Of a stretch of DNA of 64,000 nt, positions 26,956 to 59,982 are shown one piece after another. This DNA is from Agelas oroides (taxonomy: Eukaryota > Porifera > Demospongiae > Agelasida > Agelasidae). The notes under the pieces were generated by a model. That model made no database searches. It was given only the letters and a program-made list of their open reading frames with translations, and was not told where the DNA came from. Made by a program: the position numbers and the translations under genes. The stretch is taken from NCBI GenBank assembly GCA_949130485.1, contig OX422187.1:4550159-4614158 (forward strand), read 5' to 3'. The stretch's first letter is position 1; each line of letters starts with the position of its first letter.

Positions 26956-27857
26956 CTACAACTATATATTGTCCAGACACATGCTCTCTGTCTACCTGCC
27001 CATTTATCACAGGCTCTGTACTCTCTTCACTATGTAATTTATTAAGATGAGAATGTGGAGCAAGCATGGCAAGGGAAACCATTCAGCAGGGCATCTCTCC
27101 TCCTGATATAAAAGTGTTTCCAGTTGACCCCTGACAGACTTTTGGTGGCATATTTAGATTACCTGTGAGTCAGTAGCTACCACCTGTAAAGTCATGACAC
27201 TCAATAAGTAGAAGATTGTGGGGGCTGTTGGTTGCCTAGTGGTTGTGGCTCAGTAGTCAGAGCACTGCATGGCAGCTCACATCAGTCCAGTGGCTGATTG
27301 ATGGCTTTTCACCTTCCACTACTTTGCCTCATAACCTTCAATGTACCATTATTTCTAGATGTTTCTATAGCTACAAGCTATGTGATGAAAGTCAAAACAC
27401 TGTCTTGTATTCTTCAGTAGATTTGCACCCCAGCTTCGTGAGTAATGTATCATGTGTAAATAATAGCCTTGTTGCCTGGCTCCTGAGAAGCCCTATACGT
27501 TGATCCTTAAACTCAGGCACTATATATTAATGTAGTACAAGTAGCAAACCGATAGTGAAGGAAACTCAAACAAGAGTCCTCAAATCACCGAACTTTGCAT
27601 GGAAAGTTGGAACTATCTATAGGCGACTCAAGAATGCTAACAAGCTGTCAAAAGTGGAAAGACATAGCCAGCATGCAGACCATGATGCACTGCCCTTGCA
27701 TGCTCTTTTGAAGCCAATCGTAAGGCACAACGGGGTCCCTCAATAAAAGGCCTGGGAAGGAGGCTAGTCCGCGACCTCTTGTGCATGATCGTGACCTAGT
27801 AGTGGGCGGAGCAAATAAATCAATTAGAATTAGATCCGCCCACTTTTTCTAGCAGCG
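26956..27857. other. Intergenic between PDE and GNS
   Basis: About 900 bp with no recognised gene. A stretch near 27240-27300 (GTGGCTCAGTAGTCAGAGCA) looks like a tRNA A box, but no matching B box was found, so only a decayed tRNA-derived SINE is possible. It should contain the PDE 3' UTR and the GNS promoter, same strand. Confidence 0.5.
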
Positions 27858-37789: not shown

Positions 37790-40700
37790 CTACACCCCCT
37801 GCTCCTTCATGTGCCCACCTTGGGGATCTACGTTAGTTCCCTCTTGGCTGGCCTCTTGTTTATTCTCCACCAGCTGGGATTCCATGATGGCTTTTTCTGC
37901 CTCCTGCTCCTCTCCAGTGACAAAGGTGGTCACATCTAGGTAGTCTGCCAGGGGATCCAGGACTGATGTGATGGTAGTCACCAGCTGAGCAAAGGTTGGC
38001 CTCTGCTCTGGATCTGCATCCCAGCAGCTCAGCATTACCTGGTACCTGCATTTCAAGAGTAATAATGCTTATTGGTAGCTATATGTCCACTAGGTTATTG
38101 TCAGGTATTAAGCTATAGTCTGGCTCCATATGAGTACACCAACATTGCAACAACGTACATGCCCAGTTTATAGAAACTATTAGGTGCAACATATTTTTAA
38201 TACTCATAAGGACATTCTTATCATGTGATCAACCATTCTGGATTGACACACTACTCTTGTGTGATAACAATTGACTATAGATATAGTGGAACCCATCTAA
38301 TGCAGACACCAGGGACCATCGCTGTGTGTCTGGCATATAGAGGTGTCCGTATTTTGGAAGCTTCCGGTGTACTTCCGTGGTAATAAGTATGGAAGGCAAT
38401 CCGTACCTGTCTGCATTTAAGAGGTTCAGAATAGTGGGTGTATACTTATGTTAGTCTTGTGACTAAGGATAAAAGAGGTATACACTACTTCATCTTAGCC
38501 TTGCCCTTGTTCCCAGGCCTTCCCACTATCCAGTTCCTGATCACTTACAGTGTGGTGTTTGCTGAATGTTGTCACTGTACTTTAATGTACTGTGACTCAA
38601 ACAGAGACAAGACACTAAAATGAATAAATGACACCACATGAACATTTTATACACACAGAAAAAGAAAAAGAACCCTTCCTGGATCCGAAGAGACGCCAAG
38701 CGCCTTCAGGCATACCTTGAGAGGAAGAACGCCACAAAGCCTGTTGAAAGTCTTGTAATCACAGGAAGCACGGTCATCAGCCAGATAAATAGTTCGAAGG
38801 CTGGCCATAGGAATGAACGACCTCTAGTGGATGTCCAGCCAACTAGTGCTGATGAGCCTTTGCCACACTTAGCACCCAAGCCCATTTCCAAAACCTCTGC
38901 TAGGTCTGTCACAGCTGAACAAATGCCAACAAGCTCTCAGCATCCTACCCCAGTGACCCCAGAGCAGCAGCCTTCACATCTAGCAACTAAGAAGGTTGAT
39001 ATAACAGATTTTCAACAGGAACTGGATGGTGCAGATGTGTCCTACGAAATGAGAGATGGTGTACCTGGTCTCTTGTGTGTGAAGTGGGATAAGCATGATT
39101 GGATCCCCATTTGAGTGTTAAAATCGAAGTACTGGAAGAAGTTTGAGCAACCGGAGGAATGTCTGTCTGGTGATAGTGAGTATGACCCAGAAGAGGAGTA
39201 TACTTAAAGAACTGTAAGAGGCTACGCTACTTCAAAAGCAAGAATGGAAATCCTGCACTGAGTGTCGCAACAGGACATCTTATGTTTCCCACACCAATAG
39301 CCCAGAGGACAAGATCTAAGGTAACCTAGGACCAGATTAATTCATCATGTAACCATTTGATATTGTGTGTGTGGTCTCATGGGCCGAATTTGGCCTGCTG
39401 CTAATGTGGCGTGACCTAAAAACCAATTCATTCATTTATACACACAGGACACAAATAAATATAATGTTCCTGTTCATGCCATATTCAGTGTGCAAAAATC
39501 ACAAGGGAAGGCCTGGGAGCATTTATCATGTGAATGACATCAATATCTACCTAGGTAGACTGAGAGGGGCAGTGGGTCCTCAACAAGCAGCAACGTTTTT
39601 GTTTCATGAACGTTCAGGACTCCAGTGCTTGGATTGACACTGCAAGAGAACACTTCAAAGACTCCCCCCCCTCCCATGAGATCACTTGAAGTTCTCATTC
39701 CTGCCATGTTGAAGTCCTATAAACAACTACAGGTTTAAGGTCTGACTGTCAGGTCTGGAGCATGTTAACTACTGAGCCTGTACCTTGCGCTTTGTGCTCG
39801 TCGTACTCCCCCGCCCCATCGAAATGGCAGCTTGGTATCCACTTTGGCTGGATCCCTGGCAGCTCAGCCTTAAGTACTCAAACTCAGCCACTGAGTTGCC
39901 GAGTGACTCAGTAGCTCAGTTGGCTAGAGCATGGCAGGCCATTTGCCAGGTCGCGGGTTCGAGTCCCTCCCTGAGTCACTGTCTTTTTTCCCCCCTCTTT
40001 CTTTCTCGTCTACATTTCTCACCTTTCTCTCTCAATGACTTTGACTAGGTTTAAGGGTCTGGAGCATGTTTACAACTGAGCCTGCGCCTCGCACTCGCTG
40101 CACCCCCCCCTCCCCCGAGGCCCCATTGCCTTGAAGTTCTCATTCCTGCTCTGTTGAAATCCTATAAACAACTACAACTATCATACTTTTGTACACATTT
40201 TGTGTCATTTGTGCATACATCCAATATGATAACATACATTGAATCACAGCAAGCAGCATTGTATGGCTTTGGGAGCCTCTCTCCATTCTCCAGCTGAGTA
40301 ATCAGAGATGTTGGGTGGATGCCAGGATAGGGTGTCTTGGCAGTACTGAAGATCTCCCAGCACGTCACCCCAAATGACCACTGCACAAAATTCAGTTGAA
40401 ACCAACATCTCAGATGGTTAATCAACATCATGACATTAGTTATGTATCATCACTGAGAAAAACAACAACAACAACAACAACAAACAAGAAAAGCAAAACA
40501 AAACAAAACAAAAAACAACAACAACATTTTATAATTATCTCATTGAGGCAACTGTGAATACGGGTTTGGAATGATTTTGTCTCTAGATAAGGTGATTGCA
40601 GTTTAGCAAGATGTACCACTGATTTCCTATATGAGAGGAACTTCAAGTTTACCATGATGAACTCACCACATCTGTTTTCTCTGAGAATATTCCATCAGTC

Positions 40701-43700
40701 AGACTCTCATAAGCCATCCACTTTATAGGTAGCTTGACACCAGCAGTTGGCTCCTGTCGAAAGTAGCTCTTTGCATAGGTGTTCTCAGATAGACCAAAAT
40801 CAGCCACCTTGATGACATAGTTCTGATCCAGCCTACATAGTGGAGCCATTATACAAATGCACAGACTGTTTGCCTTGTGCACATGCTCAGATTAGTATGC
40901 ATGGTATTGTGTGAAAGTAGAAATTTGGGAACACGAAGCTGTGCGATACATTTGCTTGAAGTGTATGAAGACTACATTAGTGAGGAGGTGCATACTTCCC
41001 TCAATGTAAAGATCTGCACTGTATTTATTGGACCAACTGCGCATTGAATCACCAAAGCGATGCACCCTTGGTGGGCTATTGCAAGGGAAACTAAATGTTT
41101 TGCCTTATCTGGGCCAACTAGATTCTTGATGTGTGTTCTGAAGCAGTCACACTTTTTGCTTGCACTTTGACACTGTAGCGTTATCATGTTGAGACAGCTC
41201 CAGTTCCATTCACACAACTGCACACTCCTCACCAGCATTCACAAGTTTTGGCATAACCATGTGCATACATGCATGTGTATACATGCCAACTGTGACAGAT
41301 ATAGATACACACATACAGAGATACATGCATACATACATACATACATACCTACCTACCTACATACATACATACATATACATATATACATACAAACATGCAA
41401 CATACATATATACATACATACAGACAGACAGATGTGGACTGACTACACTTCACAATTATCAGCCTTGTACTAAGGAGCTCGGCAACAAATAATCATATCA
41501 CAGATGGCTTGCGGTTACATGCAATCAATGGGAAAATTTACATGAAAAGAGTAACGTACATGCAGTTTCTGGCTGCAAGATCTCTGTGTACCAACTTGTG
41601 TTCAGTGAGGTACTCCATTCCTTTGGCAATCTGAAGGCACATGTCAATCATCCTCTTTTGAGTTTTACAGACCTGTATGTATGCATTGGTCACATCAGAA
41701 GCTCATGAGCTTCATGAGCTTATGAGCATCGTTTGATAACTCAAAATCTGCATGAATCACATAATAGCATGAGGGTAAAATAAGCATGCTAGTCTAACTA
41801 GCCATACTACATCCAAGTTTTCTATCATTGCAGAAGGTTAAAGATCTGGAATAAAGGCTATGATAGATTATCAGCTGCATGTAATATGTCTTATGGTAAA
41901 GTCATTGTGAAATTCTATAGTGAAGTTATTTATGTGTATACCAGATCGATATCTTCATCTTCAGAAATCAGCAGCTCTGTCCTGCGTTTCCTGAGGTATG
42001 AGTGGAGACTGCCATTGGCCATGAAAGGCATCACTATGTAAGGAGCCTGTCCAGCAAGACAGATACCAAGGATACCCATCACATGGGGATGCACAAATGC
42101 CTTCATTTTCAGGCATTCCTTCAGAATATTTGCAACATCACTTGGATCGAGAAAACCTAAACATCGTCAGAAAGGGATTATCATTAAAACATGCATTGCA
42201 GCTTGCTATGTGCTCACTTAGCATAGCAACTGAGTCAGGCACACTTGAAATAGCCTCATACCTAGGCGTGGTCCTAACTGCACCTGGGTACGAGGCTAAA
42301 TGCATCTGATTCAGAACACAGGATGGCCTGGGATACTAGCCACATATATCACAGGTAGACACCTGTTATGGACATGCAGTGTACACCATGGCCTATCATA
42401 TTCTCACCTTTGATAGTTTTGACAGCCACCATTTCACTTTCTGTCTTCCTTAGGATGGATCTGGTTAGACGAGCTCTGTACACAATGCCAAACTCTCCTG
42501 CAATGAATGGATTGGCTTCTAAACCATCAGTGTGTATAGTATCTATTAGTTTTGGATTACTGGAAATGGCCAAGCACAGGTACAATCATGGGATAAACAG
42601 TAATGCGTAGAAGTACATAACAGACATACATTGAAGTGAAGGTTAGTAAATAGATGTGCAAATAGAAGATGAGCTGTGATAACTAAAAATCTAATATTAG
42701 GTGAATGTACAAAATAGTGGGGGTGAGCATGCACGAGAAAGCAGTACACTGAAGCATTGAGCCATAACTGTTACATAACTAAAGCTTTTGCCAGTGAAGT
42801 ATCAGATCACAGCACACAGGCTGTGCATGTAGCTAAACAAGGTTTGTCACTTCATTGTCAGTGCTTAATGTTTTAAAGAAAATTGTTATAGTTGTAGAGA
42901 AGAGTTTGTCAAGTTTGTCCTGCCTAGGCAACTACTCTGCCTGGCTTGTCATGCATATAGTCCTCAATTGAGGCATCATCTAACAAATAGCAGAGGAAGT
43001 CGGCACACACAGCCAAGAAGGACAGTCGGAGCATGCCTTCTGCATTCTGTAAGCAGCCATGCTGTCTGCACCGTTTAATAGCCCTCATATAATTATACAT
43101 ACAATACATACTTATGCTCAAGCTGCCTTTCCCGAATGTCGCATCCAACTGTTCTCCCTTGTTACACAGTAGTTGCGCATGCTCAGACTTGTCCTTCCTG
43201 GCTGTCTCTCATAACCTTTGTCATTCAGACTCACCTGCTCACTGGCTGTATTAAAGCCATGTATGTAAATAATTAATATAACCTGTTACCTAGGCAACAT
43301 ATAAGAATGTTGCTCATATCTCTCTTCTACAGTGATGTTGCCTAGGTAACAGGTATATAATAGTTATATCCCTCCCTGGGGTGTGGTCTTACACATTGGT
43401 GTCAGGCTACGCCCGACACCAATGTGTAAAAGACCACCCCCAGGGAGGGATATAACTATTACATATATATTTTATATTTATTTCCCGTTGCTAGGTAGCT
43501 GTCAAGATTATTGATACAAAATATATGAGCAACATAAATACCCTTTTAATCCCAGTGCAATAACTAGGTGTGAAGAGTGCAATGTCTAGGTGTGAAAATG
43601 CAATATGTAAGTGTGAAGATGCAATATGTAAACGTGAAGAGTGCAGTATCTGGCTCTGAAGTAATAGTTATATCCCTCCCTGGGGGGTGGTCGTTTTACA

Positions 43701-46700
43701 CATTGGTGTCGGGCGTAGCCCGACACCAATGTGCAAGACCACACCCCAGGGAGGGATATAACTATTATATAACCTGTTACCTAGGCAACATCACTGTACA
43801 AGAGAGATATGGGCAACATTCTTATATGTTGCCTGGGTAACGGGTTATATAATGATGTAATAGCAATGGCAACAAGCATGTACAACACATAACTGCCAAA
43901 TTAAATGAGGCATGCATGCATAACGCGGCATGAGGCATGTTGTCGATTTATAAGCATGAGGCCCAAGGCCGCAGCCTGAGTGGTTTTCTTTTGGGCTGGG
44001 AGAGTGGACAGACAGCAGTAGTAACAAGAAGGTCATGGAGCTGGAGTGGCCCACTTAGAGACTAAAGCTTAGTGTTTCGCATGCACAGGATCTCTGGCAC
44101 TTTGTATGCAAAGATCAGGAAGACTAGCATCAACAGACAGCAAAAAATCAGTGGATACTTGCTTCTCTGGATGATCAGCAAATCGCTCGCTTCTGGCCTT
44201 TTTACATGATGTGAAGTTAGCCTTAGCCCTTTTTGTAGAGGATACCATGGTTTTGGTACATATTTCTTGCTGAGTGTCCCTTCTTGATCTTTGCTTACGA
44301 AGTCTCAGCTATCCTGTGCATGCAAAACACTAAGCTTCAGTTTCTAAGTGGGCCGCTCTAGCTCCATGACTTCCTCGCCACTTCTGCTGTCTGTCCACTC
44401 TCCCAGCCTAGAAAAAACTGACAATGAGCGTCTTTGCTCTGAGGATTTGGAATTCTCTCAAGCAGACTTGCTCAGAAATGATGTCCTTCAAATTGAGATC
44501 TATCGCTACTAAATTATGTGATTGCTATCGCTTAGCAACTGAATGCTTTGCATCTAGCAACTACCTAGCAATGGGAAATATACCGTATAGCGCTAAATTT
44601 TCGTGGGTCTTTAATTTCGCGAATTTCGTGAATTTTCAACCGTTCACAAAAATATTTCAACGAAAATTCATGATGCGGCGTGCACTGTGCGCGTGCAGTG
44701 AATTCGCGAAATTATTTCAACGAAATCTTCAAAAATCGCTATTCGCGAAAATTTAGACCCTCGAAATTTAGCGCTATACGGTATTGCTTATAAAACGTGT
44801 ATTGGGATATAACAGCTTTATATGCTTATAAAATGGTTACATCGCTCGTGCCCGTGTGTGTGTACATATATGGTATGATTTACCAAGTAAAAACTAGATT
44901 GTTGTTGGGGCGAGACTAAAGCATTCATGCAGTACCACCTGTGAATTTGGCATTTGTAGCTCAGCATGGCAGCTCAAGCCAGGGTTGAATTTCAAATGAC
45001 CACCAGTTTTCTTGTCGGTCTTATTCTCTCATTTTCACCATATTTATTTCTTCCAGGCAGCCAAGTCTTGTGACCCTTGTTTCTACTCCATTCCTTCTCA
45101 GCATAGGTGAGACTTGAGAACAATAGTAATTGGACTTTTAACCAAACAAAGTTAACGAATAGAGGGACAGAGTCCAGGCCGGCTGGGTTGTGCAATGCGC
45201 GGTGTGTGCATTAATGAAGGAGAGCCAAACCTTAGGTGCATGCACATATTGGGTGAACTGCTGGCAGTGGCGCGACAGACGAAGCAGCGATGTGTGGCCT
45301 GTGGTGTGCTAGGCAGTCACAGTTTCTCTCTGTTGCCCACCCTATCCCTCCCCCCCCCCCAAAAAAATAAATAAAAAAATTAAGCCAAAGCCTCACTCCT
45401 TGATCGTGTTGTACGAACACATAGTGTCTCCACCTATTTTGGGATGTGATCGGTCCGGGCGGGGTGGAGCCCAAGACGAGCCCAGGCTCCACCCAGAGAG
45501 TTAGGTCCTCAAAAACACTCCTCTGGCTACACCTCCAGACTGTGCATACCTGCCAGTCCTGGTGAAGCATCAATGTGAGTATAGGCCTGGACCTAGCCTC
45601 ATACCCAGCGGCCTGGGTACGAGGCTAGCCTGGACCTCATTCCAACACCTCATGGACTGAGTATAACCAATAGAGCAGTGACTGGTGCGACATGTGCAAT
45701 TGTTTGAGTCAAACTTACTCACACATTTTCTTACCTTGTCCGACAGAGTCAAGCAGGTGAAGGTTACTCATGTGAAAAATCATTTCTTCAGGGAAGTCCT
45801 GTAGATACGCAGTAGCTTCTTTATTCAGCTCAACTTTAACCCTTCATAAAATAAAACAAAAACAAAAATCTTTAATTTCTTACGTGCAATTTAAGGTATC
45901 TACTGTATGTACAGTTGGTCAGAATGTGTTTCCTGTAAATGAACCTGATAAGCTGTGTATGGAACCATATTTGGTAGGATAGTCACTTTCTCCACATACA
46001 AGTTAGTAACATATTTCTTTGGTAAGACTACGTACTAGTGTGTTTAAACAACTGCCAAGCTGACAAGGATTAACTTGTGCACAATCATTGTTCATAAACA
46101 TTGTGCTTACATTAACTTATAATTTGGCAGTACTGGATAGAAAGAATATTTTGAGTGCATCAGTGCATTTGAAGCACAGTATCACTAAACTCCCATTAAG
46201 GATGGAGCTCATAGGCACTTTATAGACGCATCAGATATTAAAATGGGTTGTGCATCTATGAAGTGTGTATGAGTTACACCCTTAAGAGAAGCTAAGTGCC
46301 ATGGTACATCAAACCCAGTGATGTGCTCGAAATATTCAACAGAATAATATTTGACTTTTATCTGGGCTGCCACATATGCAACACGACAGATTTATAATTT
46401 ACAGAGTTAGTACCCGTGTTTGTCAAACTGCTGCATCTCCAGTTTTTCACCTCCTTCATATCTATGGCTTGATGGCTCATCAAGAATGCTGAAGGTAAAA
46501 TAATAGCATTTCTAGTTCTGCTTAATTGTACTTTTGCTGGTATTGACACATGCACGAACCTCCAACCAACTATAACTATTGCATGTTGAATCTATTTGTT
46601 TATCTTCACTTACCAGCCATGAAGAAAAACATGAATAGGTCAACCACTGAAACATCATTAGAAAATTTTTGAATATTCAAGCTTTGATGTGTGTAGCCTA

Positions 46701-49700
46701 AATGAGTATCCTATATAATGTAGGAACCACCATCAGGTCTCTAACTGGGTTAGAGACCTAACCACAGGTCTCTAACTGGTGACTTAGTGACCTCATGAAT
46801 ATGGTTATTAGTGTGAAGTCTAGTCTGCTAATTGACTTAAACTCTTTGAACTGAACCAGACAACTCAAATTGTTATTACAACTAGTGATAAGAGTGGTAA
46901 ACAGTACGTTGCAACACAGCAGGTTTACACTATACTGAAGAAGTTCAGTCAAGAAGAATTGGAATTAATGTTGATGGTGATGTTTGTGCCTCCTGTGATC
47001 TGGAAAGTAGGAACCATCGCATTTTCCTTTTCTTCATGACGAGGACGCTTTGGCTCTGGTGCTGGTTCAGGCTTTGCTTCTGTGATAGCAGGGGTCACAT
47101 TTTGTTTTCCACTGTTGAACACATCTGAAGTGAGTTGTCTGAGTTTGTCAGATGTCCTCTTGTATGCACGTACACCGTCAGTGCTGGAGTGGCCGGTTCT
47201 TGTCATTATCAGCTGTTCGTCTACCTCTGCATCAAACAGTCGGGTAGCGGAAGTCACATGTAGTGAATGATTGGTGTAGTGTCCCTCAAAACCAGCTTCT
47301 TTCATCATTTCACTGATTATTTTGCCAAGGGTGTTGTGTCCCATTGGAACTTTCGAGTACCAAACCTTCCCCTTTGGTTTTGACAATGGAGTGCGGTACA
47401 AAGCATGGGGAGGACGATCTTCAGGACACTTTGGTTTTGACAATGGAGTGAGGTACAAAGCATGGGGAGGACGATCTTCAGGACACTTAGAGTTTTGACA
47501 ATGGAGTGAGGTACAAAGCATGGGGAGGATGATCTTCAGGACACTTTGGTTTTGACAATGGAGTGAGGTACAAAGCATGGGGAGGACGATCTTCAGGACA
47601 CTTAGAGTTTTGACAATGGAGTGAGGTACAAAGCATGGGGAGGACGATCTTCAGGACACTTAGAGTTATAAAGCTTATAAAGCCGTACGAAACACCTCCT
47701 TGGGTCTTGCTCATTAGCATATTGATACACTTCCTTTGGTTTTTTCTTTTTGCTTGTAAGACCTCCCTGGTTAGTTTTTGAAATATCCTCACGATAAACT
47801 AAATAAGCACGATCACCAGGAGGCTCATGGAGCTGAATCTGAGAAGGAGAATGTCGTAAGCGTCTGTGTTCGTTACCGCTCCTCAGTGCAAAGAAATAGC
47901 CAACTTGATAGACAATTGTATTAAGAAGCACCTGAGCATTATCATCACCCAGTAAGCCAAGTTCCCAGAGGCGATTTTCCTGCTCTTGGGTTATAGGTTG
48001 TGCCTGCTTTTTGTTCAAATAATTACCAGTTGCATTTAAACGCTTCATCTCACCATCAAGTGTGGAGCGAAAACCATGGAGGGAGGGGTTGTCAAACAGC
48101 TTGATATCTGCACGTCCATGCTCACGTATGCTGACGCTGCAAACCACAAATGAGCTGGTAAAGTGTATTGGGGGGATATGGGTCACCATTCTTTTTGCGT
48201 ACTTCTAGGATAAACCTAGACAGCCAAAAATCCATTTCAGACACAGTCAACTCACAAAAAGCCGTACTGAAAGGCTCCTCGTCGGATAGGAGCCTAGTAT
48301 TCCTAGCAAGAGCTCACTGCTTCCACACTTTCACAGCCCACTCAGTTTGTTCTTTTGTCTTTGTTGGGATGCTTGCATCTCTAGCAGATTGTACAGCCGC
48401 CTTTCCCTTTGGGGATGCATACACACGATTAGCGCTAGTAGAGGTCACAGTAGTGGAGGCCACGGTGACTGACGCCGTACACATAGTACTAGCGGCAACA
48501 TACTGGCTTGTAGATGTCTCCACCTGCGTTAAAACCTGCTCAAATTCAGCATCGAAGTGAGGGAAGTAGTTTTCATCGTCGAAATTAGCCAAAAGGTCAG
48601 TGGTCTGTTGACTAGACAACTCACAGGATGGATCCAACATTTGTGAGCTGGTTAGGTCCATTCCGCAAAGTGTAGAACCAGTAGAGCAGGCTTCTTCAGG
48701 TTCAAGTAGTCTCTCCCATCCTAGCTCTATCGGATTTTCCCTCCTCCATGTGCAAAAAGTGCAGTTAGGTCCAGTATAGCTATGCATCAAACCGCTTAGA
48801 TCGTCAGGAACAGGAGGACCACATAGTCTAACTCCAGGAAAGGGCTCAAAAGTCATAGCGGTAGCTAGTACAATAGCAACTAGAGAAAGAACAAGGAACT
48901 GCAAGAACTAGCTAGACAGACAGCAGAGCGCGCTTAAATTTTCTAAATCAGCTAGAGTATGTAACTGAGATTTCTTAGCTGTATAGTAACCCTCGTGGCG
49001 CGTAGTGGCTTCAGCCATACCACTAAATGACCTCGGCTCCCCCTCGGTCATTTTGTGGTATGGCTTCAGCCACTACGCACCACTCGGGTTACTATACAGC
49101 TAAGAAACCTCGGTTACATACAGGGTTTTGCAGAATCTTTGCAACGCTGCTTAGAATGCGTAAAGCGAAAACCGTATTGCGTTCCTTATATGGAAGTCAA
49201 AGTTTGCACAGTGAGTCTATGGTTATGTAATATGACTCACACTTTATCTAATTATGTGCCTATGTAGGCTTGTTCACAGCCACTTAATTATCAACCAAAC
49301 ACAGCTGGGTACTTCAACGCCTTGCGCTTGCATGTTGCAAAGATTCTGCAAAACCCTGTACTCTAACTAATACGTAAAGCAATTTGAATGTTGACTAGCG
49401 TATGGCCACATGAGTGTGCAAGACTTTGATATGAAGCACTGTCATCAGATCTGGCTGATCAATTATTATCCTGACAAGTTGGTGTGTTTGAATGTTTTAC
49501 CTTTAAGGTCAGTGAAAGTGTTTGATATAGCATACTGCAATGGGTTGCTTCAACAATGATAGAAAGTGCCTTAGACTGAGCTATATCATAGGCAGTAAGA
49601 TAATATGACATCTACAAGTATACTGCAATGCACAGAATAAGATTGTAGTATATTTCCTGGGATAAAAGCTGTATTTATCTGCATGGGTGTGTTAAGTGTA

Positions 49701-52700
49701 CAGATCCCATTTGAGGGCAGAAACACTCAAGGACAGACAGATTATTTCATTGTTACTTGAAATGCCATAGAAGGTGAGCACACAGAATTTAATTACCTTT
49801 CATGTAGCCCTGAAAGTTTAATTTCCTTCCTTCTCTTGTTATAAATGAGGCAGCCAAGGAGGAGAATAACTAACATAATCAAGACTGTGACACCTGCAGT
49901 AGTCCCACCAATAACAGCTCCAGTATCAATGGAAGACGTGGCTTCAGAAGGAGTGGTTTCAGGAGTGGGTCCAGAAGGAGTGGTTCCAGAAGGAGTGGTT
50001 CCAGAAGGAGTGGTTCCAGAAGGAGTTGGTGCATCTGTCATGGTTAGAATATCCAGCATAAAATCTCCCTGAGTTTCAGGTGGTCATTGTTTTCACAATA
50101 TACATTTTGCATCTCGATGGACAATGTATGTAACCTGATAGCTAGGGACTATTGTGTTCAGTCAAGCCATACACTTTTTCTGCCGCTCTGAAGTTTCCTT
50201 CACTTTGTAGAAAATATGCATTCTTAGTCAAACTAGTAAAATAACAGTAGCTGATAAACACAATGCATGTTTCTACATATATAGTTGAAAGTGGCAGTCG
50301 TATTAGGCACTACTTTATACATGAACTCAACTAATCTCTACTAGACATTAAAGGTAGAACTGTGCCCAGAAAATGCCATAGTCATGCATTCATACAAACA
50401 AACTGCCCCAATAATGGCTCTCACCATCATCTTAAATGTAGACAATAGCTTCACTGAAATTGTTGCACAATTTGTGAGGTAGAACTTGTTATGTGCAGTG
50501 ATGTTAGATGGATGTTAGAGAGGACTGGTACATTTTTTAAAGTGTCTATTTGGTCTGTACTCAAGACCAGTAGCTGAGTGCCAAGCATATTAAACTTCAA
50601 GCAATTGCAACAGTGCTGTCAACATTTCAGGGGAAAAAAATGGATTGTTTAGTATTTGCCACACATCGTCATTTTGGCATGTTACTGCATGTGACAATTT
50701 TTAGCAAGCCATCCAATCTCTACCTACTCTCCACCACTGCATGCATATCTGCATGGTGGAGTACTGTGCCAACACTAAATTTCTGAAGTTGGGCACACAT
50801 GTAGCTCCCTCACCCACATCATTGGAAACCAATGGTTCTTACTATCATTTTCCTGAATGATGATGACAGCTTCATTTTGATTAATGGAGATGTTGACACC
50901 CTTTGGTTGCGTGCTGTTCACAACAAAGCTGATTGTAAAGTTTTCTGCTGGTTCAGGATCACTATCCTCGGTGATAATTATCCTGAAGCATCTGCCAGGA
51001 TTAGAAGCATTGTTGTTCACTGTAGCTAAGTCACGATGTAGTTGAAAATCGCTTGCTGTATACATGAAAAAAAAAAAAATTCTTTGAAAGATAGTAGGGT
51101 GCATAGGTAGTCTCATATGATTCAAGCAGTTGCAGAGCCTGGGTAATTAAGAGGCTGTGTACACTGAATGTTTGTTGGTTCAATATAGTTCAACTAACCA
51201 TCTGCAGTGCTAGAAGATGTAGACCCCATCAGTTCAGCAACAACATTTGGAGCAATGTGACTCAGATTTGTAGGCTGAAGAAATGCTGCACACACTTCCA
51301 CAGCACCATCATCTTCTCCAAATGTGTAGACAGTTTGTTCAAATCCAACAACAGCCACTAAACAATTAGAGACAGAGCCTGGTTTAAAATGGTAGAAATA
51401 ATCCAAATAGGCTTCTAAATTAAACATTTTTATTTGCAATGTATAAAGATAGTACAATAGTACAAATTTTGTTCTTTAAGTACCATGATTCACAAATAGT
51501 ATACGGCCTGTAGTCAATGGATCTCCCTGCAGATTGCCTTTCATAAGCCTGAATGCAAGTGCTAGAATTACAAATCAGCACGTGTTACACTCATAAAGAA
51601 TGCTGCATGTTTTCTGCTGCTGTGGTTTAGTTATGTATATATGTATATCACTTACCATCATTATCCAGGATGTCCAGTATGACTGTATCTCTGCCAGGTA
51701 CAAGTGAGGCTGGCGCTGTTACATTACTAGAAATAACAAAGTTCTCTGTCCCTTCCAGGACTTGGTCATCCCTAATAAAAACTTGGACATTGCTATCATT
51801 AGTGCTCTGGTCAAATGTCACATTTGTATCAAATGTTAGTGAGGAGTTCACCAGAGAAAAGTCTTCACCCTCTGCAAGGAGAAGAAGGGAGCAACAATAA
51901 AGAAGGAAATACTTAGAAAGTGACTGACGGCAATCGATTCATTCAACGTTACGATTCATGTAATAGCAATTGCAACCCAGGGTTGCAACCCACCAGTAGC
52001 ACTGCCATCAACAACTGCAACTGTGACTATAATTGGCTCCTGAAGAGTGACATTGGGAGGTTCAAGTAGAAACTGAATGCCCAGCCTTACGACACTACCT
52101 TCCCTGGCGGTAGTTGTATTCAGCAGGAACTGAACCTTGATTGCTGTATGAGTGCATGTGAAGGCCAATGATAGGTAACTTCATTCAAAAAGGTCTCACC
52201 TACAGTTATGTATAGAGCGGAGTGGAGGAACACTATATATCAAAGCTAGACCCAGAAAGTATATTGTATAATTAACAATATGATATATACTTTGCAAACA
52301 ATAATAATCAATGATACATAACAAGTATATTAAGTGTATTATATAGCTAGACTATAAGCTACAACATAAAATGTTGAGCAAGTCTGAGCTGTCTGCATCA
52401 GTGCACTTGTGTCGTTAAATTTTTGGCAAGTGTCATTGTGGTGAAGGCCTTCAAGATTACACACACCCACACTCACCATCATTATCCAGGATGGTAATAG
52501 TGACAGTATCTCCGCCAGGTACAAATGAGGCTGGTGCTGTTACACTGCCAGAAACAACAAAGCTCTCTGTCCCCTCCACTAAAGAATCATCAATGATATC
52601 AATTGAAGCACTTTGGTTACTGTCTGACGTAGCCTCTTGCAAAAATGTAACTTCTTGTCCAAGCAGATGAAAATCTTCACCTTCTACAAAGTGGTAGATG

Positions 52701-55700
52701 AGAAAAACGGTGAAAGTGGAAAGAAAATAATGAGCTTACTATGAAATTTCGTACAACAGATTTTGACTTCAACTGTGTGATAATTGTGGAGCAGATTTTC
52801 CTGCACTTTTACACTGAATCGTGCACACACTGTTCATTAAACTGAACAAGGAAGCATATGTATGACTGCAGTTTTGGTCTATGTGTATCAGGGCCTCATT
52901 AGTTCCTTGTTGTGTACTATGCATTGTGAAAACAAACAACAGATTTGGCATTTCTGTAGATTCTGCATTCTGCAGTGTTAGTCTCTGCTTTTGCTTCTTA
53001 TTGGGCGATATTGTGATGTGTCAAAATTCCCATGGTCGTTGTGAATAGAGGGTGCTACTGCACTCTACCAGCACACGGTTATAATGGCAAAGCAGCTTGG
53101 CTTCAAAGTGGTTGATAGTCCACTCACCATCAGTATGAGGCTAAGCATAAAAGAAGTCGTCACACACAGTGATTGTAACAAGTCCTGTTGACGTGTTAAT
53201 CGACATACTGATAACAAACTAGCCTTTTTCCCAGGCCACTCCCAGATTTTATCACACAGCTGTGGAGGGCTGCAAGATAAAATCAGGGAGAGGCCTAGGA
53301 ACGAGGCTAATAAAAAATGGCATATATCCATAAACTAAGTATAGCAGGCACAAATCTGCCTGATCTTTGAGTTGGAGTTATTGTAATGATCACTTGCCCA
53401 TGAACTGTACCTGTAGCACTACCAGAAGAAACTGAGAGTGTTATTGTGATATTGAATAGAAAAGTTGCATCAGCAGGTGTTAACTGAAGCTGAATGCTTA
53501 GACCTGCAACATCTGCCTCTGTAACAGTACTTGCATTCTGCAGAAATTGAACCTGAATTGCTGCATGTGTGAGAAAATGCTGACATAAATCAGAAAAATC
53601 AGCAATATCTGCTTCCTTATTTTGTGTGTGAACTGATCATGCAGTACAAAATATCTTTTAGGATGTGCATACAACTACCCACACTTACCATCATTATCCA
53701 GGATGTTAACAGTGACATTATCTCGATCAGGTTTAAATGAGGCTGGAGCTGTTGCATCACCAGAAATAACAAAGCTCTCTGTTCCCTCCACAAGGGTATC
53801 ATCAATTATATCAACTACAAGACTTTGAACATTGTTGTTACTTGTTCCTGGACATAGTGTCAACATTTGGAAAATCAGACTGAAATCTTTATCCACTGCA
53901 AGCAGGTGGGAAAATATAACAGTAAATGATACACAACCATTCATTGACATATATATTGGAATTTGTAACACACATAGCTTCCAGTTTTACCTGTAGCATT
54001 GCCATCCACAATTGAGAAGTTTAGAGTAACGTCTGTCCCAAGTATGGCAGTGGGAGGACAGAGAAGAACCTCAATACGCAAATATATTCTTGGATTATCT
54101 TCATGTTCAGGATTGGAATTGTTCTGCTGAAATTGAATCCAGATTTCTATACAATGAATGGCAGAGATGAAATCTTCATGGGACAATCAGCTAGCCCAAA
54201 AAACCTTAGTGGCCCAGTCAACTGGAGAAGACAGGGTCTAGGAAGTGTATATGTATGGCTTTTACTTCAGTAGTTCACTAAAGGGTTAAACCCAGCAAAG
54301 AATATGATTATGAGAAGACTCATGAAGTTTACTTTGGCAGGGAGGTGTTACTGTTCTACCAAAGGTGCATGAAATTGTCATGTAATTTTTACTAGCCAGT
54401 GAAACAGTGGATTACAAGCAGAACTTCACTACGCATGGAAGAGGATTTTGATTTTATCTGGTGGTTGGGCAGTGAATTTTCAAAGCTTCCAGTCAGCCTC
54501 ATATGTGATCAAGCTCTAATTTGTAGTGGGGTAAAAATATCATGAGTGTGAGAGAACAGATACTACACAGTCAGACCTCAATTGTCTTCCTTTCTGTATC
54601 CTGCATTACAGCCTGCACATTTATGGTGTTATCAAGGTCATTTTATGCAACTTTCTGATATTGTAATGATAGGTTATCAATAAGTAACTTGTGAGGCCAA
54701 ATTACAACCTCAAGGTGGCTTAGCTCCTTCTTGCCCTATTGCACAACAGGAACACTTACACACATAGCAGTAGTCTACCTAGCAAACTCTCATTGGATCT
54801 TTGGTGTTGAGGACTCATGCTAGTTGTGGGCCAAGGTATGCTGTCCTGTTACTGGAATTCTGCCTTTAGTGTAGTGAAACTCTAAATCTTAAAGATTGTC
54901 AAATTCTTGTAATTCCAAACTAATAAGACATAAACTAACTGCTATGGAATGAATGCCTCCAAACCTCATTCTGCCTGCCCCCTTCCACTCACACATACAC
55001 CTTTACATCGCAGAAATTGGGTTCATGCTCACAAAATACTGTTACCACTGGTATTGAACAATGGTAGCCTACACTTACGCTCATCATCAATAATAGTGAT
55101 AGTGTTCATGTTTCTACCAGGCAAAAACTTGGCTGGTGGTGTTACACTGCCAGAAATAACAAACGTCTCTGTCCCTTCCACCAAACTGTCATTAACAATA
55201 CTAATTCCAACAGTTTTGATAGAGTCATTGTACACATTAGTGCCATTAAGAAACATCAGCTCAGTCGTAAGTAGACGGAAGTCTCTCATATCTGGAGGGA
55301 GGTGAATGAGAGTGCATGTGATATTTAGTTCAGCCCATGTTAGGTTAATTAAACCATCTGTAACTACTGTATGTACCTGTAGCATTGTTATCAGGCATTA
55401 CTGAGAGAGTGACAGTAATATTTGACTGGAGGATGGCAAATGATGCTATCAGAAGCTGGATGTCAACAGAGACTGAAGTAGCACTCTCATTCACAATAGT
55501 TGAGTTGTGCAGAAACTGCACTTGGAACACTGAATAGATTTGTGTATGTTTATAGGAGTTATGGTGTCAAAAGAAAGAGGTAATATGATAAATCTGTACT
55601 TCCAAGTCTCACCATCTACAAATTTGCTTGTGCATGCAGTATAGAGTTTTAGAATGAATGAACATGCCACTAGCTTGTCATTTCAGTGCCCAACTGAGAT

Positions 55701-58700
55701 AAAACGTTTGTGTAATTTCTCAGTAAGAACACAAAGTTTCTTTCAAATTTCAACTTCACAATATGAAAAAGAAGTGAGGAGGATGTGTACATAGTGAGCC
55801 CAGAAAATGACTTGCTGATCAGTCTTGAGTTGAAGATGGCCATGCTGGGTGCTACATAGCTGCAATCTCACTGAGAGCTATGAGTTACCGTGTAGTGGGT
55901 TATTTTCATGGGTTGCTAATTTTCATTATTTTTGTGACTAGCCCAGGCATCATGAAATTTTGCACCCACAAAATTTTCTGTCTGCAATATCAACTGCATA
56001 TAATGCTACTACTGCCATGCCACAAATTTAAAACCACAAAATTTAATTCTGGGGCTTTTCATGAAAACTTCCACCCACAAAAATAACCTGCTACATGGTA
56101 GTTAGGCCAGCACGTATCCCGAAACCTGCTAAATCGTATGCTTGATAAAATTGTGAGCTTTTTACATTGAGAGTGGTATAGTATACAATTATACTCAATC
56201 CTACACCCAATTAATGGATGTGCGTGGGCATGTTAATCTCTGCTATGTGTATAGCATGTGATGCTCACAACACTAATTGATCCCCACCTACTCTACTGCC
56301 ATTCAATGGTACTGAATTGGATTCTTAGTGAAGTATAGGTTTCACTGTGCTAACAGAAACATTGGTACAAGCAATATTGGTACAGACAGCTACTTCATCC
56401 CTGATGAACACCAATGGCTCTTACGGTCATTTTCTTGAATGGTGATGACAGCTTCACTTTGATTAAGGGAGATGTTGACACCCTCTGGTTGCACCTTGTT
56501 CACAACAAAGCTGATAGTAAAGTTTTCTGCTTGCTCAGGATCACTGTCATCCATGATAACTATCCTGAAACAACCTGTATTATTCCTCAATAAAACAGTT
56601 GCATTAACAATCTCAAAGTCATTTTCAGCAGTTGTATCTGAAATAAAGAGAACAGAAGTTTGAAAGACATGAAGCTACATACTGCTATTACAAACATTAA
56701 CTACTTCAGTGGAACCTACCCTCTTAATTACTTGAATAGACACCTAAACTAAAGACCCTGTTTCTTTACTAAAGATATTGACCAAGTGTACATTATTCTC
56801 ACTTACAAACTTGAGTAAAGAAAACTTGCTACATATTTGTGGGAACAAAGTGTGTTCATGTTATCACTAGTTGTATAATATTATGAAGTTGTGCACTAAA
56901 CTAAATACTGTAGTCTCGCGAAAGAACGGCCACCCCCTACTTTTGGCCTACCTTACTGTATAGGGTCTCAAATGAGCACCCACCCCTGGAGCGAGCTTCA
57001 CTGACTAACAGAGCACACTTGTGGAGTTTCTGAGAAGCACAGCTTCAAGTGTTACCGTATAGCGGGTTATTTCCGTGGGGTGCTAATTTTCGTTATTTTC
57101 GTGGTCTGTCATGTAGTATTTGGACCCCCATAGTAATCGGACCCCCGGTCCAAATTTTACGGTAGTATTGGGACCCCCTTTCAAGTATTTGGACCCCCCT
57201 AACAAGCACGCACGCAACACATTGGTTGGTCAGTTCACTGTCTTTCTGGGACGACTGTGCTAGTCTGTCAATCTAAGACTAAGGTGAGAATACAAAGGTA
57301 GGTAGAGTCACAAAATGCGAAATGGAAGACCAAAGACAACGGAAAGAGAGAGATCGCTACCAGACTACCAAGGATCGAGACTACGAGACGAACACAGGAG
57401 GCTGAGAGTGTACTACCTGTATACCATGTCTACCTGTATGCCATGTCTTGTGTGAATGCATGTACTCAACTGTACTTGACTCTAATGCTTCTTGGTTTTG
57501 TAACAGTTGTTTATAGATTGTTAGATATTTTTGCGTGTGTGTGGATGATTACATTGCAGTGCCAAATTAATTGTAATTTGTAGTATCATTGTAGTTTCAT
57601 GCCCAAATTCATGCTTCATAACAACACTTCAAACTTCCAGCAGGTCCAAATATACCTACAGATTTCTGGAGTTACTGCTTAGAGCACTGGGGGTCCAAAT
57701 ACTTTGGTACTACTTTGAAGTATTTGGACCGGGAGTCCAAATATTCGTCGAAGTAGTTGGACCCCATGGGGGTCCAGTTATTTCAGAGGGGGTCCAAATA
57801 CTTCAGCTCTACTCTGAAGTAATTGAACCGGGGGGTCCAAATACTTCAGCTCTACTCTGAAGTAATTGGACCGGGGGGTCCAAATACTTCAGCTCTACTC
57901 TGAAGTAATTGGACCGGGGGGTCCAAATACTTCGAAGTAGTTGGACCGGGGGGAACTATTTCAGGGGGGTCCATTTTTTTTGTGACAGGTCAACTCTGGT
58001 GTCACGAAATTTTCCACCCACGAAATTTTCTACCCACACTGTAGCTCTGTCTACACGTGCTAACGTTCGGACCGGGCGACGTTCTTTTTCGCTACTTGTG
58101 CCCTGTTGACAGTGCCCTTGATCCGTAGGGTCCCCTTTCTCAAGCTGTCCCGCATGTGTTGATGGAGGAAGTGAACAGAGAAGTGAACAAGGCAGAAGCA
58201 CGACCAAAAAACGGGGCCAGTACCTCTCGTTCAGGTATGCGAGCACCAACGGACTTCGTGCTTTGTAGACGTGGTAGCCTACCATGCAAGACTTGATACT
58301 GAAGCGCTCCATCTTTCCTCTAGTCTCGTGTAGCCAGACTCTTTCCGGTGAGAGTCTGGCTACGCGTTCCTCGCCGAAACAGCATCGTGTGTACCGAGTT
58401 CAAAGTTCACATTACGTTATATGCGAGCCACGAAATTTAAAACCACGAAATTTAATTCTGAGGGCCTCTTCCAGCTTTTCACGAAAATTTTCACCCACGA
58501 AAATAACCCGCTAATCCTATATGGTATGTATCTCTAAAGTACGAAACTTCAAGTTATACTTCACTGAAGGTTATTACAATGTTGCTCTGCATAGATGGAC
58601 GTAGCTGAGGTAGTTGCGCTCTGCCAGCTACACCATGAAGCATTACTCACAATGATGCATTGCCATTCAGAGTGTTGTGTGCGGTCAGGACTTTACTGCT

Positions 58701-59982
58701 GGCACCTCTATGTGCATTATTGTTTGTTCAATTATTGCTTCAAGGACATTGAGTTGCTGTAAACATATGATATGGGCAATATTTTATGCGGAAACACTTG
58801 AAACAGTGACAACCCCCCTCTTTGGCAGACTTGTAAGGTGCTCTTGCTCTACCCACGGGTGCTGTTTTGCGAGACTACAGTATTACACATACAACACGCA
58901 GGGTATGTACTTGGAGATGTAGATCCCATCAGCTCAACAACAACACTTGGCGCAATTTGGTTAGGATCCAGAAATGTAGCACATACTTCCACAGTACCAT
59001 CACCTTCTTCAAATGTGTACGCAGTCTGATTAAATCCAATAATAGCAACTGCATGAAGGTGGGAAGAACCATTTAGAATGCTAGTATAACAGCCAGGTGT
59101 AAATTAAAGTAATTGGGTGTCTAATAGAAACATGTAGCTATTGTACAGCTATTGGATGCCCCATACAGATAGTTATTTTGCTCTGAATATGGTATTACTT
59201 GGTTCAGAATGCTCTATAAACCTGGGTATTCTGTTCAAAGAAATATAGCCTTGGTTCCACCGTTTGAGGAAGCATATTTATTTAACCTATGTAATATACA
59301 TGTCTGCACAGGCTTCTGATATTTTGTGTGCTACGCTGTATGAATAGGGCTCAGCTCAGATCAAGCAGTAACTGTGCTTCCAATTACTTCATTACCACCC
59401 CCACTTACGATCATTGTCCATGATGGTAACAACAGATGTGTCATTAACAATTAGATTTGGACAGAGTGCTGCTGAACCAGAGATGTTAAAGCTCTCTGTC
59501 CCCTCCACAACAGAATCATCAAGAATGTCAATAGTAATATTTCTGATGGTGCCATTCCCAGCACCAGCATCAAATGTCAGCTCAGCTGGTAGTAGAAAAT
59601 CTGAACCATCTGCAATCAAAAGAGATGAAATATAGTGAAATCATCAGCTGTATGTATGACAAATGCTGAAGCCTTCCAATGTGTTGTTTAAATGATGATG
59701 GGTATAACTATGTGTATATGTACTAATATCCTTACTTGTTGCAGTGCCACCATTGACTGAAAAGCTGACAACAACATCAAAGGGAAGAGAAGCATCAGAA
59801 GGTATGATATTCACCATAATGGGTAGAAATATTTCACCCTCATCCTCCTCCACAACATCTCCAGGAAATGGTTGTAAGAACATAAAGTCAACAGCTGCAA
59901 GTATTAACCATGGGTGAGTGGATGCAGAGAGCAGATATAATACTACACAAAGACCCAGTATATATGAAGTTGGAACTGCCAT
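37790..59982 (-). CDS. Receptor tyrosine kinase with seven extracellular Calx-beta domains
   Basis: Exons in transcript order: 59982-59736 (signal peptide [20 protein letters not shown] plus first half of Calx-beta 1), 59609-59409, 59048-58911, 56637-56425, 55529-55377, 55291-55079, 54146-53993, 53895-53689, 53560-53411, 52683-52477, 52143-51994, 51871-51656, 51357-51199, 51051-50843, 50064-49797 (stalk [16 protein letters not shown] helix [21 protein letters not shown] stop-transfer), 46488-46414, 45841-45735, 42497-42408, 42156-41942, 41672-41560, 40832-40667, 40380-40238, 38045-37790. Each Calx-beta domain is two exons with phase-1 introns; second halves carry DDS.VEGTESF and TILDND. The kinase has [11 protein letters not shown] (completed across an intron), [22 protein letters not shown], tandem loop tyrosines YAKSY, KWMAYES and [13 protein letters not shown], so it looks active. 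Phases match at every join, including 49797 to 46488 (2/2). About 1,300 residues. Calx-beta domains bind calcium in some proteins. An upstream exon with an alternative acceptor at 59894 is possible. Confidence 0.85.
38638..39114 (+). other. Uncharacterised ORF, probable mobile-element remnant
   Basis: An open frame of 158 codons in the last intron of the receptor kinase gene, on the opposite strand. It is lysine-rich at the start ([14 protein letters not shown]), then Pro/Ser/Thr-rich, ending [10 protein letters not shown]. Protein-like sequence appears to continue out of frame to about 39320. I do not recognise it; the basic opening resembles proteins of mobile elements. Confidence 0.35.
39640..40180. 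repeat. Direct repeat pair flanking a tRNA-like sequence
   Basis: Sequence at 39690-39810 (GAAGTTCTCATTCCTGC, CTATAAACAACTACA, TCTGGAGCATGTT) recurs at 40050-40180. Between them lies 39905-39977, which resembles a tRNA: A-box-like GTAGCTCAGTTGGCTAGAGC, B box GGGTTCGAGTCC, and paired ends GACTCAG and CTGAGTC, followed by a CT-rich tract. Probably a tRNA-derived SINE or tRNA pseudogene. Confidence 0.5.
40455..40530. repeat. (AAC)n and (AAAAC)n microsatellite
   Basis: Simple repeat in a kinase-gene intron between exons 40238-40380 and 40667-40832. Confidence 0.95.
41320..41430. repeat. (ACAT)n microsatellite
   Basis: Tetranucleotide ACAT/ACCT/ACAG repeat in a kinase-gene intron. Confidence 0.95.
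43270..43858. mobile_element. Large inverted-repeat pair, each arm itself a hairpin
   Basis: Two copies of one hairpin-bearing repeat in opposite orientation (43270-43470 and 43665-43858) around about 190 bp. Shared motifs: CCTGTTACCTAGGCAACAT, ATAGTTATATCCCTCCCTGG and ACACATTGGTGTCGGGC against GCCCGACACCAATGTG. It sits in the 3.2-kb intron that separates the glycine-loop halves of the kinase gene. Confidence 0.85.
43990..44412. mobile_element. Foldback element
   Basis: Arms of about 110 bp: TGGGAGAGTGGACAGACAGCAG, CATGGAGCTGGAG, CCCACTTAGA at the left, reverse complement at 44300-44410. No coding signal. Confidence 0.8.
44581..44783. mobile_element. MITE with TACCGTATAGCGCTAAATTT termini
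   Basis: Perfect terminal inverted repeats of about 20 bp around an inner CGCGAATT-rich palindromic body. It shares the first 12 bases with the element 57053-58526. Confidence 0.9.
46949..48904 (-). mobile_element. Crypton-type tyrosine recombinase element (DUF3504 class), broken
   Basis: Lies in the intron between the transmembrane and juxtamembrane exons of the receptor kinase, same strand. The N-terminal part (48904-48314) ends with [19 protein letters not shown], the Crypton/KIAA1958-type opening; then [38 protein letters not shown] and [13 protein letters not shown] (first catalytic Arg). The C-terminal part has [28 protein letters not shown] and GVRAYKR (catalytic Tyr). The HxxR motif reads HSLH, so the second catalytic Arg appears lost. 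A 57-58-bp segment coding [17 protein letters not shown] is amplified to about five tandem copies (47390-47680), which with a break near 48.2-48.3 kb disrupts the frame. Element ends were not found; Cryptons lack inverted repeats. Confidence 0.8.
48957..49120. mobile_element. Hairpin MITE just upstream of the Crypton gene
   Basis: Arms TAACTGAGATTTCTTAGCTG and the imperfect reverse complement close on a loop that is itself palindromic (GACCTCGGC..CTCGGTC). Confidence 0.85.
49119..49361. mobile_element. MITE with TACAGGGTTTTGCAGAATC termini
   Basis: Inverted ends of about 26 bp (ACAGGGTTTTGCAGAATCTT and complement at 49334-49360). It directly abuts the preceding hairpin. Confidence 0.85.
53220..53309. 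mobile_element. Short MULE-like MITE in Calx-beta RTK intron
   Basis: TAGCCTTTTTCCCAGGCC and GGCCTAGGAACGAGGCTA termini with a short AAAATC stem. Flanks ATAACAAAC and ATAAAAAAT match at 7 of 9. Confidence 0.7.
55886..56100. mobile_element. MITE with TACCGTGTAGTGGGTTATTTTC ends
   Basis: Compact (215 bp) diverged relative of the element at 57053-58526: same order of ATTTTCATT, CATGAAATTTT, CCACAAAATTTAATTCTG and AAAATAACC motifs, without its insertions. Confidence 0.85.
57053..58526. mobile_element. TACCGTATAGCGGG MITE expanded by nested insertions
   Basis: Outer ends TACCGTATAGCGGGTTATTT and AAAATAACCCGCTAA match 55886-56100. Insertions include the GGACCCCC element (57106-57988) and a GTAGCCAGACTC hairpin near 58330. 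Confidence 0.8.
57106..57988. mobile_element. GGACCCCC foldback element with 43-bp tandem repeats
   Basis: Ends CTGTCA..TGACAG. The left arm holds repeated GTATTTGGACCCCC; the right arm holds GGGGGTCCAAATAC in reverse, partly as 43-bp tandem units starting at 57791, 57834, 57877 and 57920, each an inner palindrome (CTTCAGCTC..GAAGT). The centre has no recognised gene. Confidence 0.75.

What the first reader, a model, noticed from the sequence alone, without database searches (positions are those of the whole stretch)
37790..59982. A receptor tyrosine kinase whose ectodomain is seven Calx-beta domains
Seven Calx-beta domains, a stalk, a transmembrane helix and a complete tyrosine kinase lie in order on one strand. 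All intron phases match, including the critical 2/2 join from the TM exon (donor after 49797) to the juxtamembrane exon (acceptor 46488) and the split glycine loop GQ|GEFG. A signal peptide opens Calx-beta 1. I know Calx-beta arrays from sponge aggregation factors, FRAS/FREM and Na/Ca exchangers, but not as an RTK ectodomain. It would couple a possibly calcium-dependent adhesion module to tyrosine signalling.
Basis: partly seen in the sequence, partly recalled or inferred. Interest (0 to 1): 0.92.

Follow-up and report, generated by a model that had tools for sequence, protein, structure and literature searches.

The report
Sponge receptor kinases with Calx-beta arrays
The window holds most of a sponge cell-surface receptor that joins seven Calx-beta domains (a fold best known from calcium sensing and adhesion) to a tyrosine kinase, and the same genome carries six more loci with this pairing, so an unusual receptor front end is real there, though what it senses is unknown.

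Summary
On the minus strand 23 exons with GT-AG introns, matching phases and no stop give seven Calx-beta domains, stalk, one transmembrane helix, juxtamembrane region and complete tyrosine kinase. Paralogs support the join in doubt (TM to juxtamembrane). One, 0.2 Mb away, has all 23 exons in the same order with only 263 bp at that intron; the query's 3.3 kb there holds a DUF3504 recombinase element. All 64 ectodomain matches reported for the genome (49 of 421 candidates scored) fall in seven loci, each upstream, on the same strand, of a sister kinase: a gene family. Two corrections. The 'signal peptide' is probably intron read through: Calx-beta 1 starts at a shared acceptor, and two sister genes have a stop just before it. 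A nidogen-like (NIDO) domain lies upstream in four of seven loci, so the ectodomain is probably NIDO plus seven Calx-beta. Sister kinases have NIDO, Sushi or SRCR exons upstream instead. It is a new variant within the sponge RTK radiation. Expression, ligand and calcium dependence are untested.

The parts
59736..59894 (-).
59409..59609 (-). Exon E2: second half of Calx-beta 1
58911..59048 (-). Exon E3: first half of Calx-beta 2
56425..56637 (-). Exon E4: second half of Calx-beta 2
55079..55529 (-). Exons E5 (55529-55377) and E6 (55291-55079): Calx-beta 3
53689..54146 (-). Exons E7 (54146-53991) and E8 (53895-53689): Calx-beta 4
52477..53560 (-). Exons E9 (53560-53411) and E10 (52683-52477): Calx-beta 5
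51656..52143 (-). Exons E11 (52143-51994) and E12 (51871-51656): Calx-beta 6
50843..51357 (-). Exons E13 (51357-51199) and E14 (51055-50843): Calx-beta 7
49797..50034 (-). Exon E15: Thr/Ser/Pro stalk and transmembrane helix, donor phase 2
46952..48907 (-). DUF3504 / tyrosine-recombinase (Crypton-like, label recalled) transposon ORFs inside the TM-to-juxtamembrane intron; not part of the receptor
   Evidence: the corresponding intron of P3 is 263 bp
46414..46488 (-). Exon K0: juxtamembrane segment, phase 2/2
45735..45841 (-). Exon K1: juxtamembrane segment and start of the glycine loop
42408..42497 (-). Exon K2: rest of glycine loop, VAVK lysine
41942..42156 (-). Exon K3: kinase N-lobe to hinge region
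41560..41672 (-). Exon K4: HRDLAARN catalytic loop
40667..40832 (-). Exon K5: DFG, activation loop with two tyrosines
40238..40380 (-). Exon K6: (DV)WSFG stretch of the C-lobe
37790..38045 (-). Exon K7: end of the kinase, short C-terminal tail, stop codon; AATAAA or ATTAAA at 37600

Best explanation
One gene encodes a single-pass receptor tyrosine kinase: (upstream signal-peptide exon not found) - probable NIDO domain - seven Calx-beta domains - Thr/Ser/Pro stalk - TM helix - juxtamembrane region - kinase of a sponge radiation near MET/RON and AXL/MER - short tail. It is one of at least seven Calx-beta RTK loci on one chromosome, which share a kinase type with sister genes that have NIDO, Sushi or SRCR exons upstream instead. 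Shown by sequence: the architecture, the multiplicity, differing ectodomain exons before near-identical kinases, intact catalytic motifs. Inferred mechanism: exon pairs bounded by phase-1 introns let Calx-beta modules replace the membrane-proximal part of the ectodomain; the array forms a rod, perhaps stiffened by Ca2+, that binds matrix or neighbouring-cell ligands (a Calx-beta-rich matrix protein such as the aggregation factor is the most attractive candidate); multivalent binding clusters receptors, the kinases trans-phosphorylate their activation-loop tyrosines and recruit SH2 adaptors.
For: 23-exon model with all phases agreeing; Pfam domains; stalk-TM-JM-kinase of two SRCR-RTKs (Amphimedon P0005 and its unnamed 86%-identical relative P0007) aligns colinearly (46 of 150 and 47 of 147 columns identical before the kinase core); the JM alone reached 1 to 8 of 1000 shuffles for 3 of 10 RTKs; paralog P3 has all 23 exons in order, 76% identity, TM-JM intron 263 bp, NG86 dN/dS 0.51 (Calx array) and 0.19 (kinase) (the script required the query's phases); 64 of 64 reported ectodomain matches in seven loci, each with a sister kinase downstream; ordered exon chains in P4, P5, P6; NIDO exons upstream with compatible phase-1 donor; kinase split from MET/RON/TAM by a branch with support 100/99, in a set whose named members are all sponges; presumed Ca ligands kept: five positions 7 of 7, a sixth 5 of 7.
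Against: No transcript or protein was seen. The signal peptide exon was not found. NIDO was not found upstream of P3, P4 or P5, so it may be optional or belong to a separate gene at some loci. P4 has an incomplete array and no K0 found. JM similarity is not clearly above shuffles for 7 of 10 RTKs (86 to 531 of 1000). The C-terminal tail has dN/dS 1.02. Ligand, Ca2+ binding and adhesion are not tested at all.
Confidence: 0.82

Rival explanations
1. Two neighbouring genes: a Calx-beta transmembrane adhesion protein ending near 49.8 kb and a separate kinase starting near 46.5 kb.
For: A 3.3-kb intron with transposon ORFs separates the halves; Calx-beta exons are very common in this genome.
Against: The same junction is 263 bp in P3 and TM exon to K1 is 244 bp in P4; TM plus JM align with known sponge RTKs; the seven loci keep the linkage.
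Confidence: 0.04
2. A real gene family, but this copy (or many copies) is decaying or recombined, and the receptor is mostly not made as full length.
For: P4 has an incomplete array; the query carries a transposon insertion in an intron; Calx-beta 7 to TM is about 11 kb in P5 and P6.
Against: The query is open over 1341 codons with consensus splice sites; dN/dS against P3 is 0.19 in the kinase and 0.51 in the array.
Confidence: 0.1
3. The receptor is chiefly an immune or self/non-self recognition receptor (one of a diversifying repertoire) rather than an adhesion receptor.
For: Multigene family; different ectodomain exons before near-identical kinases; the array evolves faster than the kinase.
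Against: No polymorphism or ligand data; relaxed constraint explains the same ratios.
Confidence: 0.35
4. The NIDO exons upstream belong to a different gene and the query ectodomain is only Calx-beta with its own upstream signal-peptide exon.
For: No NIDO found upstream of P3, P4, P5; several further NIDO copies lie on the same chromosome.
Against: NIDO sits about 2 kb upstream in P7 and P8 and about 8.5 kb in the query, same strand, with a phase-1 donor matching the phase-1 acceptor; sister RTK loci P2, C9 and C13 have NIDO exons.
Confidence: 0.3

Closest known systems
Sponge SRCR / Sushi / NIDO / PSI-IPT receptor tyrosine kinases (e.g. Amphimedon queenslandica P0005 = LOC100636458, P0032; Halichondria panicea RTKs)
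   Same: Kinases of one tree set with the query, same stalk-TM-JM layout, NIDO plus Sushi in P0032
   Different: Ectodomain is SRCR, Sushi, NIDO or PSI/IPT; no Calx-beta array among those listed. Three H. panicea members show one weak Calx-beta-like domain
MET/RON and TAM (AXL, MER, TYRO3) receptor tyrosine kinases
   Same: Best solved-structure relatives of the kinase after one chain that holds two EGFR kinase copies
   Different: No Sema, PSI, IPT, Ig or FN3 domain in the modelled part; kinase lies outside both clades
Na+/Ca2+ exchanger (SLC8/NCX) Calx-beta domains
   Same: Same domain family; all 11 solved sequences matched by the array profile are exchangers
   Different: There the domains are cytoplasmic regulators of a transporter (recalled)
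Adhesion GPCR ADGRV1 (VLGR1)
   Same: Works alike in outline: Calx-beta array outside the cell coupled to a signalling domain (recalled)
   Different: Seven-helix GPCR, not a kinase (recalled)
Sponge aggregation factors (MAFp3/AF family) and the putative Geodia aggregation receptor
   Same: AF proteins carry Calx-beta arrays (recalled); the putative receptor has SRCR and SCR (Sushi) domains (PMC4557014, passages seen), domain types that sister RTK loci here show too
   Different: AF is secreted (recalled); the receptor is not described as a kinase in the passages seen

Membership tests
Receptor tyrosine kinase | Complete tyrosine kinase with catalytic motifs (GxGx[17 protein letters not shown]) | tested here: met
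Receptor tyrosine kinase | Single TM helix between ectodomain and kinase in one reading frame | tested here: met
   paralog
Receptor tyrosine kinase | Signal peptide | tested here: inconclusive
   Apparent one in E1 not supported; no upstream exon found in 12 kb
Receptor tyrosine kinase | Ligand-induced kinase activity | not testable with these tools
   sequence only
Calx-beta family PF03160 | Domain profile above curated cut-off | tested here: met
   187 bits against cut-off 27, seven stretches
Calx-beta family PF03160 | Ca2+ binding | tested here: inconclusive
   Presumed ligand positions conserved (ligand labels recalled); binding not measured
MET/RON or TAM subfamily | Kinase inside the subfamily clade | tested here: not met
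   branch 100/98 holds MET/RON and TAM without the query
MET/RON or TAM subfamily | Sema/PSI/IPT or Ig/FN3 ectodomain | tested here: not met
   for the part modelled in the window
Sponge aggregation factor | Secreted, without TM or kinase (recalled) | tested here: not met
   TM and kinase present
NIDO-bearing sponge RTK | NIDO domain joined to the same transcript | tested here: inconclusive
   NIDO exons upstream, same strand, matching phase; no transcript

The most novel reading that the evidence does not exclude
A lineage-specific, still diversifying family of sponge receptors in which NIDO plus Calx-beta arrays replaced SRCR/Sushi ectodomains on one kinase type, acting as signalling receptors for the Calx-beta-bearing aggregation factor, i.e. 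a tyrosine-kinase link between species-specific sponge cell aggregation and intracellular signalling.
Probability: 0.15. Interest if true: 0.9.

Novelty: new variant of a known kind. Interest (0 to 1): 0.64.

Why it matters
It adds a tandem Calx-beta array to the list of RTK ectodomains and shows the change in close relatives: kinases that agree in 247 to 254 of 274 aligned residues with the query (paralogs P1, P2, P4, P5, P6, exons K1-K6) have Calx-beta exons upstream in some genes and SRCR, NIDO and Sushi exons in P2, in modules bounded by phase-1 introns. If the array binds aggregation-factor or matrix partners, it would make the old question of how sponge cell aggregation reaches the inside of the cell directly testable.

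Tried and rejected
Considered and rejected: a two-gene reading; the signal peptide at 59982-59895; a signal-peptide exon shared by 12 kb upstream of the query and 14 kb upstream of P3 (none found). No further domain was recognised, by eye only, in the minus-strand frames between NIDO and Calx-beta 1 (they were not sent to Pfam).

Led nowhere or weak: the third protein search with the whole 1341 aa (49 hits) did not recover the sponge RTKs, so its lack of a Calx-beta plus kinase protein says little. One search listed 120 of 2695 hits and 120 of 121, each after scoring only the 7973 or 7987 candidates sharing most words. Of those 240 proteins, 0 had separate BLAST matches to both halves; but single alignments of P0013 and P0026 ran from the Calx-beta 6 region (residues 645 and 676) into the kinase, and a few others began at 823 to 860, which fits the weak Calx-beta domains found later. 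Of 43 RTKs scanned (hand-picked from the 120), 2 match PF03160 at E<=0.01, both under the curated cut-off; an own profile adds a third, P0026. The control genomes of the family searches are prokaryotes and were of no use. The first ligand mapping was one column off; the counts given are for the columns shown there as 17, 57, 84, 85, 89 and 92. No structure prediction was made: the domains are split across exons, and that tool's description does not admit spliced proteins.

Full report
Gene model. On the minus strand I placed every exon by hand and joined them: E1-E15 and K0-K7, 23 exons, 22 GT-AG introns, phase 1 at every intron between E1 and E15, 2/2 at TM to juxtamembrane, and no stop in 1341 codons. 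The sites were chosen to fit, so the proof lies in the comparisons below. Pfam finds Calx-beta in seven stretches (187 bits) and one tyrosine kinase (284 bits). The strongest hydropathy peak is the TM helix at about residue 920. Solved-structure relatives are exchangers for the array (11 of 11 distinct sequences) and, after one chain with two EGFR kinase copies, MET and TAM kinases for the kinase (best 60 of 2288 shown).

Is it one gene? Among known proteins the closest kinases are sponge RTKs with SRCR, Frizzled, Sushi, PSI/IPT, ADAM or Ig ectodomains (120 of 2695 listed). Amphimedon P0005 and its relative P0007 align without a break through stalk, TM, JM and kinase; JM alone does better than nearly all shuffles for three of ten RTKs tested, two of them close relatives, and not for the other seven. 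The decisive evidence is inside the same genome (G000, 259.3 Mb in 141 contigs). A kinase query (106 of 996 candidates scored) finds sister kinases on C5, C2, C9 and C13. An ectodomain query (49 of 421 candidates scored) reports 64 matches, all in seven loci of C5, each on the same strand upstream of such a kinase: the query, P3 (4799959-4806617), P4 (4832169-4833659), P5 (7707043-7717237), P6 (7755138-7765322), P7 (8052602-8062134) and P8 (8230706-8241511). Of nine C5 kinase loci of this close type, seven thus have the array; P1 and P2 do not. P3 can be modelled completely: 23 exons in the same order, 76% identity over 1313 codons, TM-JM intron 263 bp, JM intron 316 bp. That script accepted only exons with the query's phases, and P3's first exon was started at an ATG that is no more certain than the query's. 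In P4, P5 and P6 the chains hold 12, 17 and 17 of 23 exons; P4 lacks K0 and part of the array, in P5 and P6 the fetched stretch begins inside the array and the TM exon is seen only by tblastn. P7 and P8 were only partly fetched. Nei-Gojobori dN/dS between query and P3 is 0.51 for the array, 0.19 for the kinase, 0.49 overall and 1.02 for the 51-codon tail. The extra 3 kb in the query's intron hold DUF3504 / phage-integrase-type ORFs.

The N-terminus. P3, P7 and P8 have an AG at the same place; in P7 and P8 a stop lies just before it; in P3 and the query the frame stays open for 49 codons with different peptides, although DNA similarity of query and P3 runs 43 bp past the site. Upstream on the same strand are three exons of a NIDO domain (PF06119, 138 bits), ending in a phase-1 donor in the query, P7 and P8. 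NIDO lies about 2 kb upstream in P7 and P8, about 4.5 kb upstream of the outermost Calx-beta exon matched in P6 and about 8.5 kb upstream in the query. It was not found in 21 kb upstream of P3, nor beside P4 or P5. I therefore read the protein as NIDO - Calx-beta x7 - TM - kinase, with NIDO likely and not proven. Its exons lie outside the window, at window-equivalent positions of about 68375 to 70144.

Different ectodomains before one kinase type. P2, about 0.13 Mb from the query, has K0-K7 (249 of 274 residues of K1-K6 identical) but exons matching SRCR regions of sponge RTKs directly upstream of its TM, and NIDO and Sushi matches further up; no Calx-beta was found in 20 kb upstream. P1 has no Calx-beta in 26 kb upstream and no recognised ectodomain. 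The C9 sister has NIDO and Sushi matches, the C13 sister NIDO. One of four C2 kinase loci was looked at; nothing was recognised in the 10 kb read. A more distant kinase on C20 has NIDO, an SRCR-like match and one Calx-beta (67 bits, cut-off 27) immediately before a TM-like segment. Thus Calx-beta and kinase lie together at more than one place in this radiation. In Halichondria panicea P0013 and P0030 have one Calx-beta match under the Pfam cut-off in the ectodomain, and P0026 one by an own profile.

Calcium. Five presumed Ca2+-ligand positions (labels recalled from NCX1, alignment) are identical in 7 of 7 domains, and a sixth in 5 of 7. This allows Ca2+ binding but does not show it, since the same residues are part of the family signature.

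What is known. Paper searches for Calx-beta with receptor tyrosine kinase (4 papers hold both, 3 listed), with tyrosine kinase, sponge and choanoflagellate (131 hold at least three terms, 20 listed), with aggregation factor and sponge (2), with kinase domain and related terms (15) and with Porifera (7) listed no paper whose title, abstract start or inspected passage describes such a receptor. Passages were seen in PMC8242945, PMC8662651, PMC6374515, PMC12716839, PMC11229196, PMC6208332 and PMC4557014; the rest as listings only. Most subscription papers are not in that library. Shuffling of RTK ectodomains across holozoans has been proposed (PMC8662651, passages) and is evident in the sponge RTKs, which is why I call this a new variant and not a new kind. 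Several 'new domain combinations' in lancelets have been blamed on gene-prediction errors (PMC4967905, listing only), a caution that the seven-locus comparison answers in part.

Limits. No transcript, no protein, no second species with the array. Function is inference throughout.

Noticed in passing
window 46952-48907 (-): DUF3504 / tyrosine-recombinase ORFs with an internal repeat, sitting in the TM-to-juxtamembrane intron of the receptor gene.
   Followed up: partly
L030 (C20:6192273-6201725, +): Divergent RTK locus with NIDO, SRCR-like, one Calx-beta, a TM-like segment and kinase exons in order: a possible intermediate to the seven-domain array.
   Followed up: partly
G000 C6, C12, C13, C14, C18, C20: 172 Calx-beta exon matches reported in this genome (150 of 1086 candidates scored, so a lower bound), many split near profile position 52 as in the receptor; on C12 and C20 several lie near NIDO matches.
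   Followed up: no
L023 (C5:4618976-4619251) and C5:4635528-4635803, 4649917-4650192: The NIDO exon upstream of the query has copies further upstream on the same strand that match its peptide at 99% and 96%: recent duplications.
   Followed up: no
L005-L008 (C5:4716484-4742971, +): Sister RTK locus P2 with NIDO, Sushi and SRCR matches and a kinase 91% identical to the query kinase.
   Followed up: partly
window 6313-7680 (-): Single open frame of 455 aa without a Pfam match and with a hydrophobic start.
   Followed up: no
window 27834-29594 (+): Single open frame of 586 aa matching sulfatase PF00884, apparently intronless.
   Followed up: no
P0013, P0026, P0030 (Halichondria panicea): RTKs with IgGFc-binding and Sushi domains and one weak Calx-beta-like domain under the Pfam cut-off or seen only by an own profile.
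   Followed up: partly
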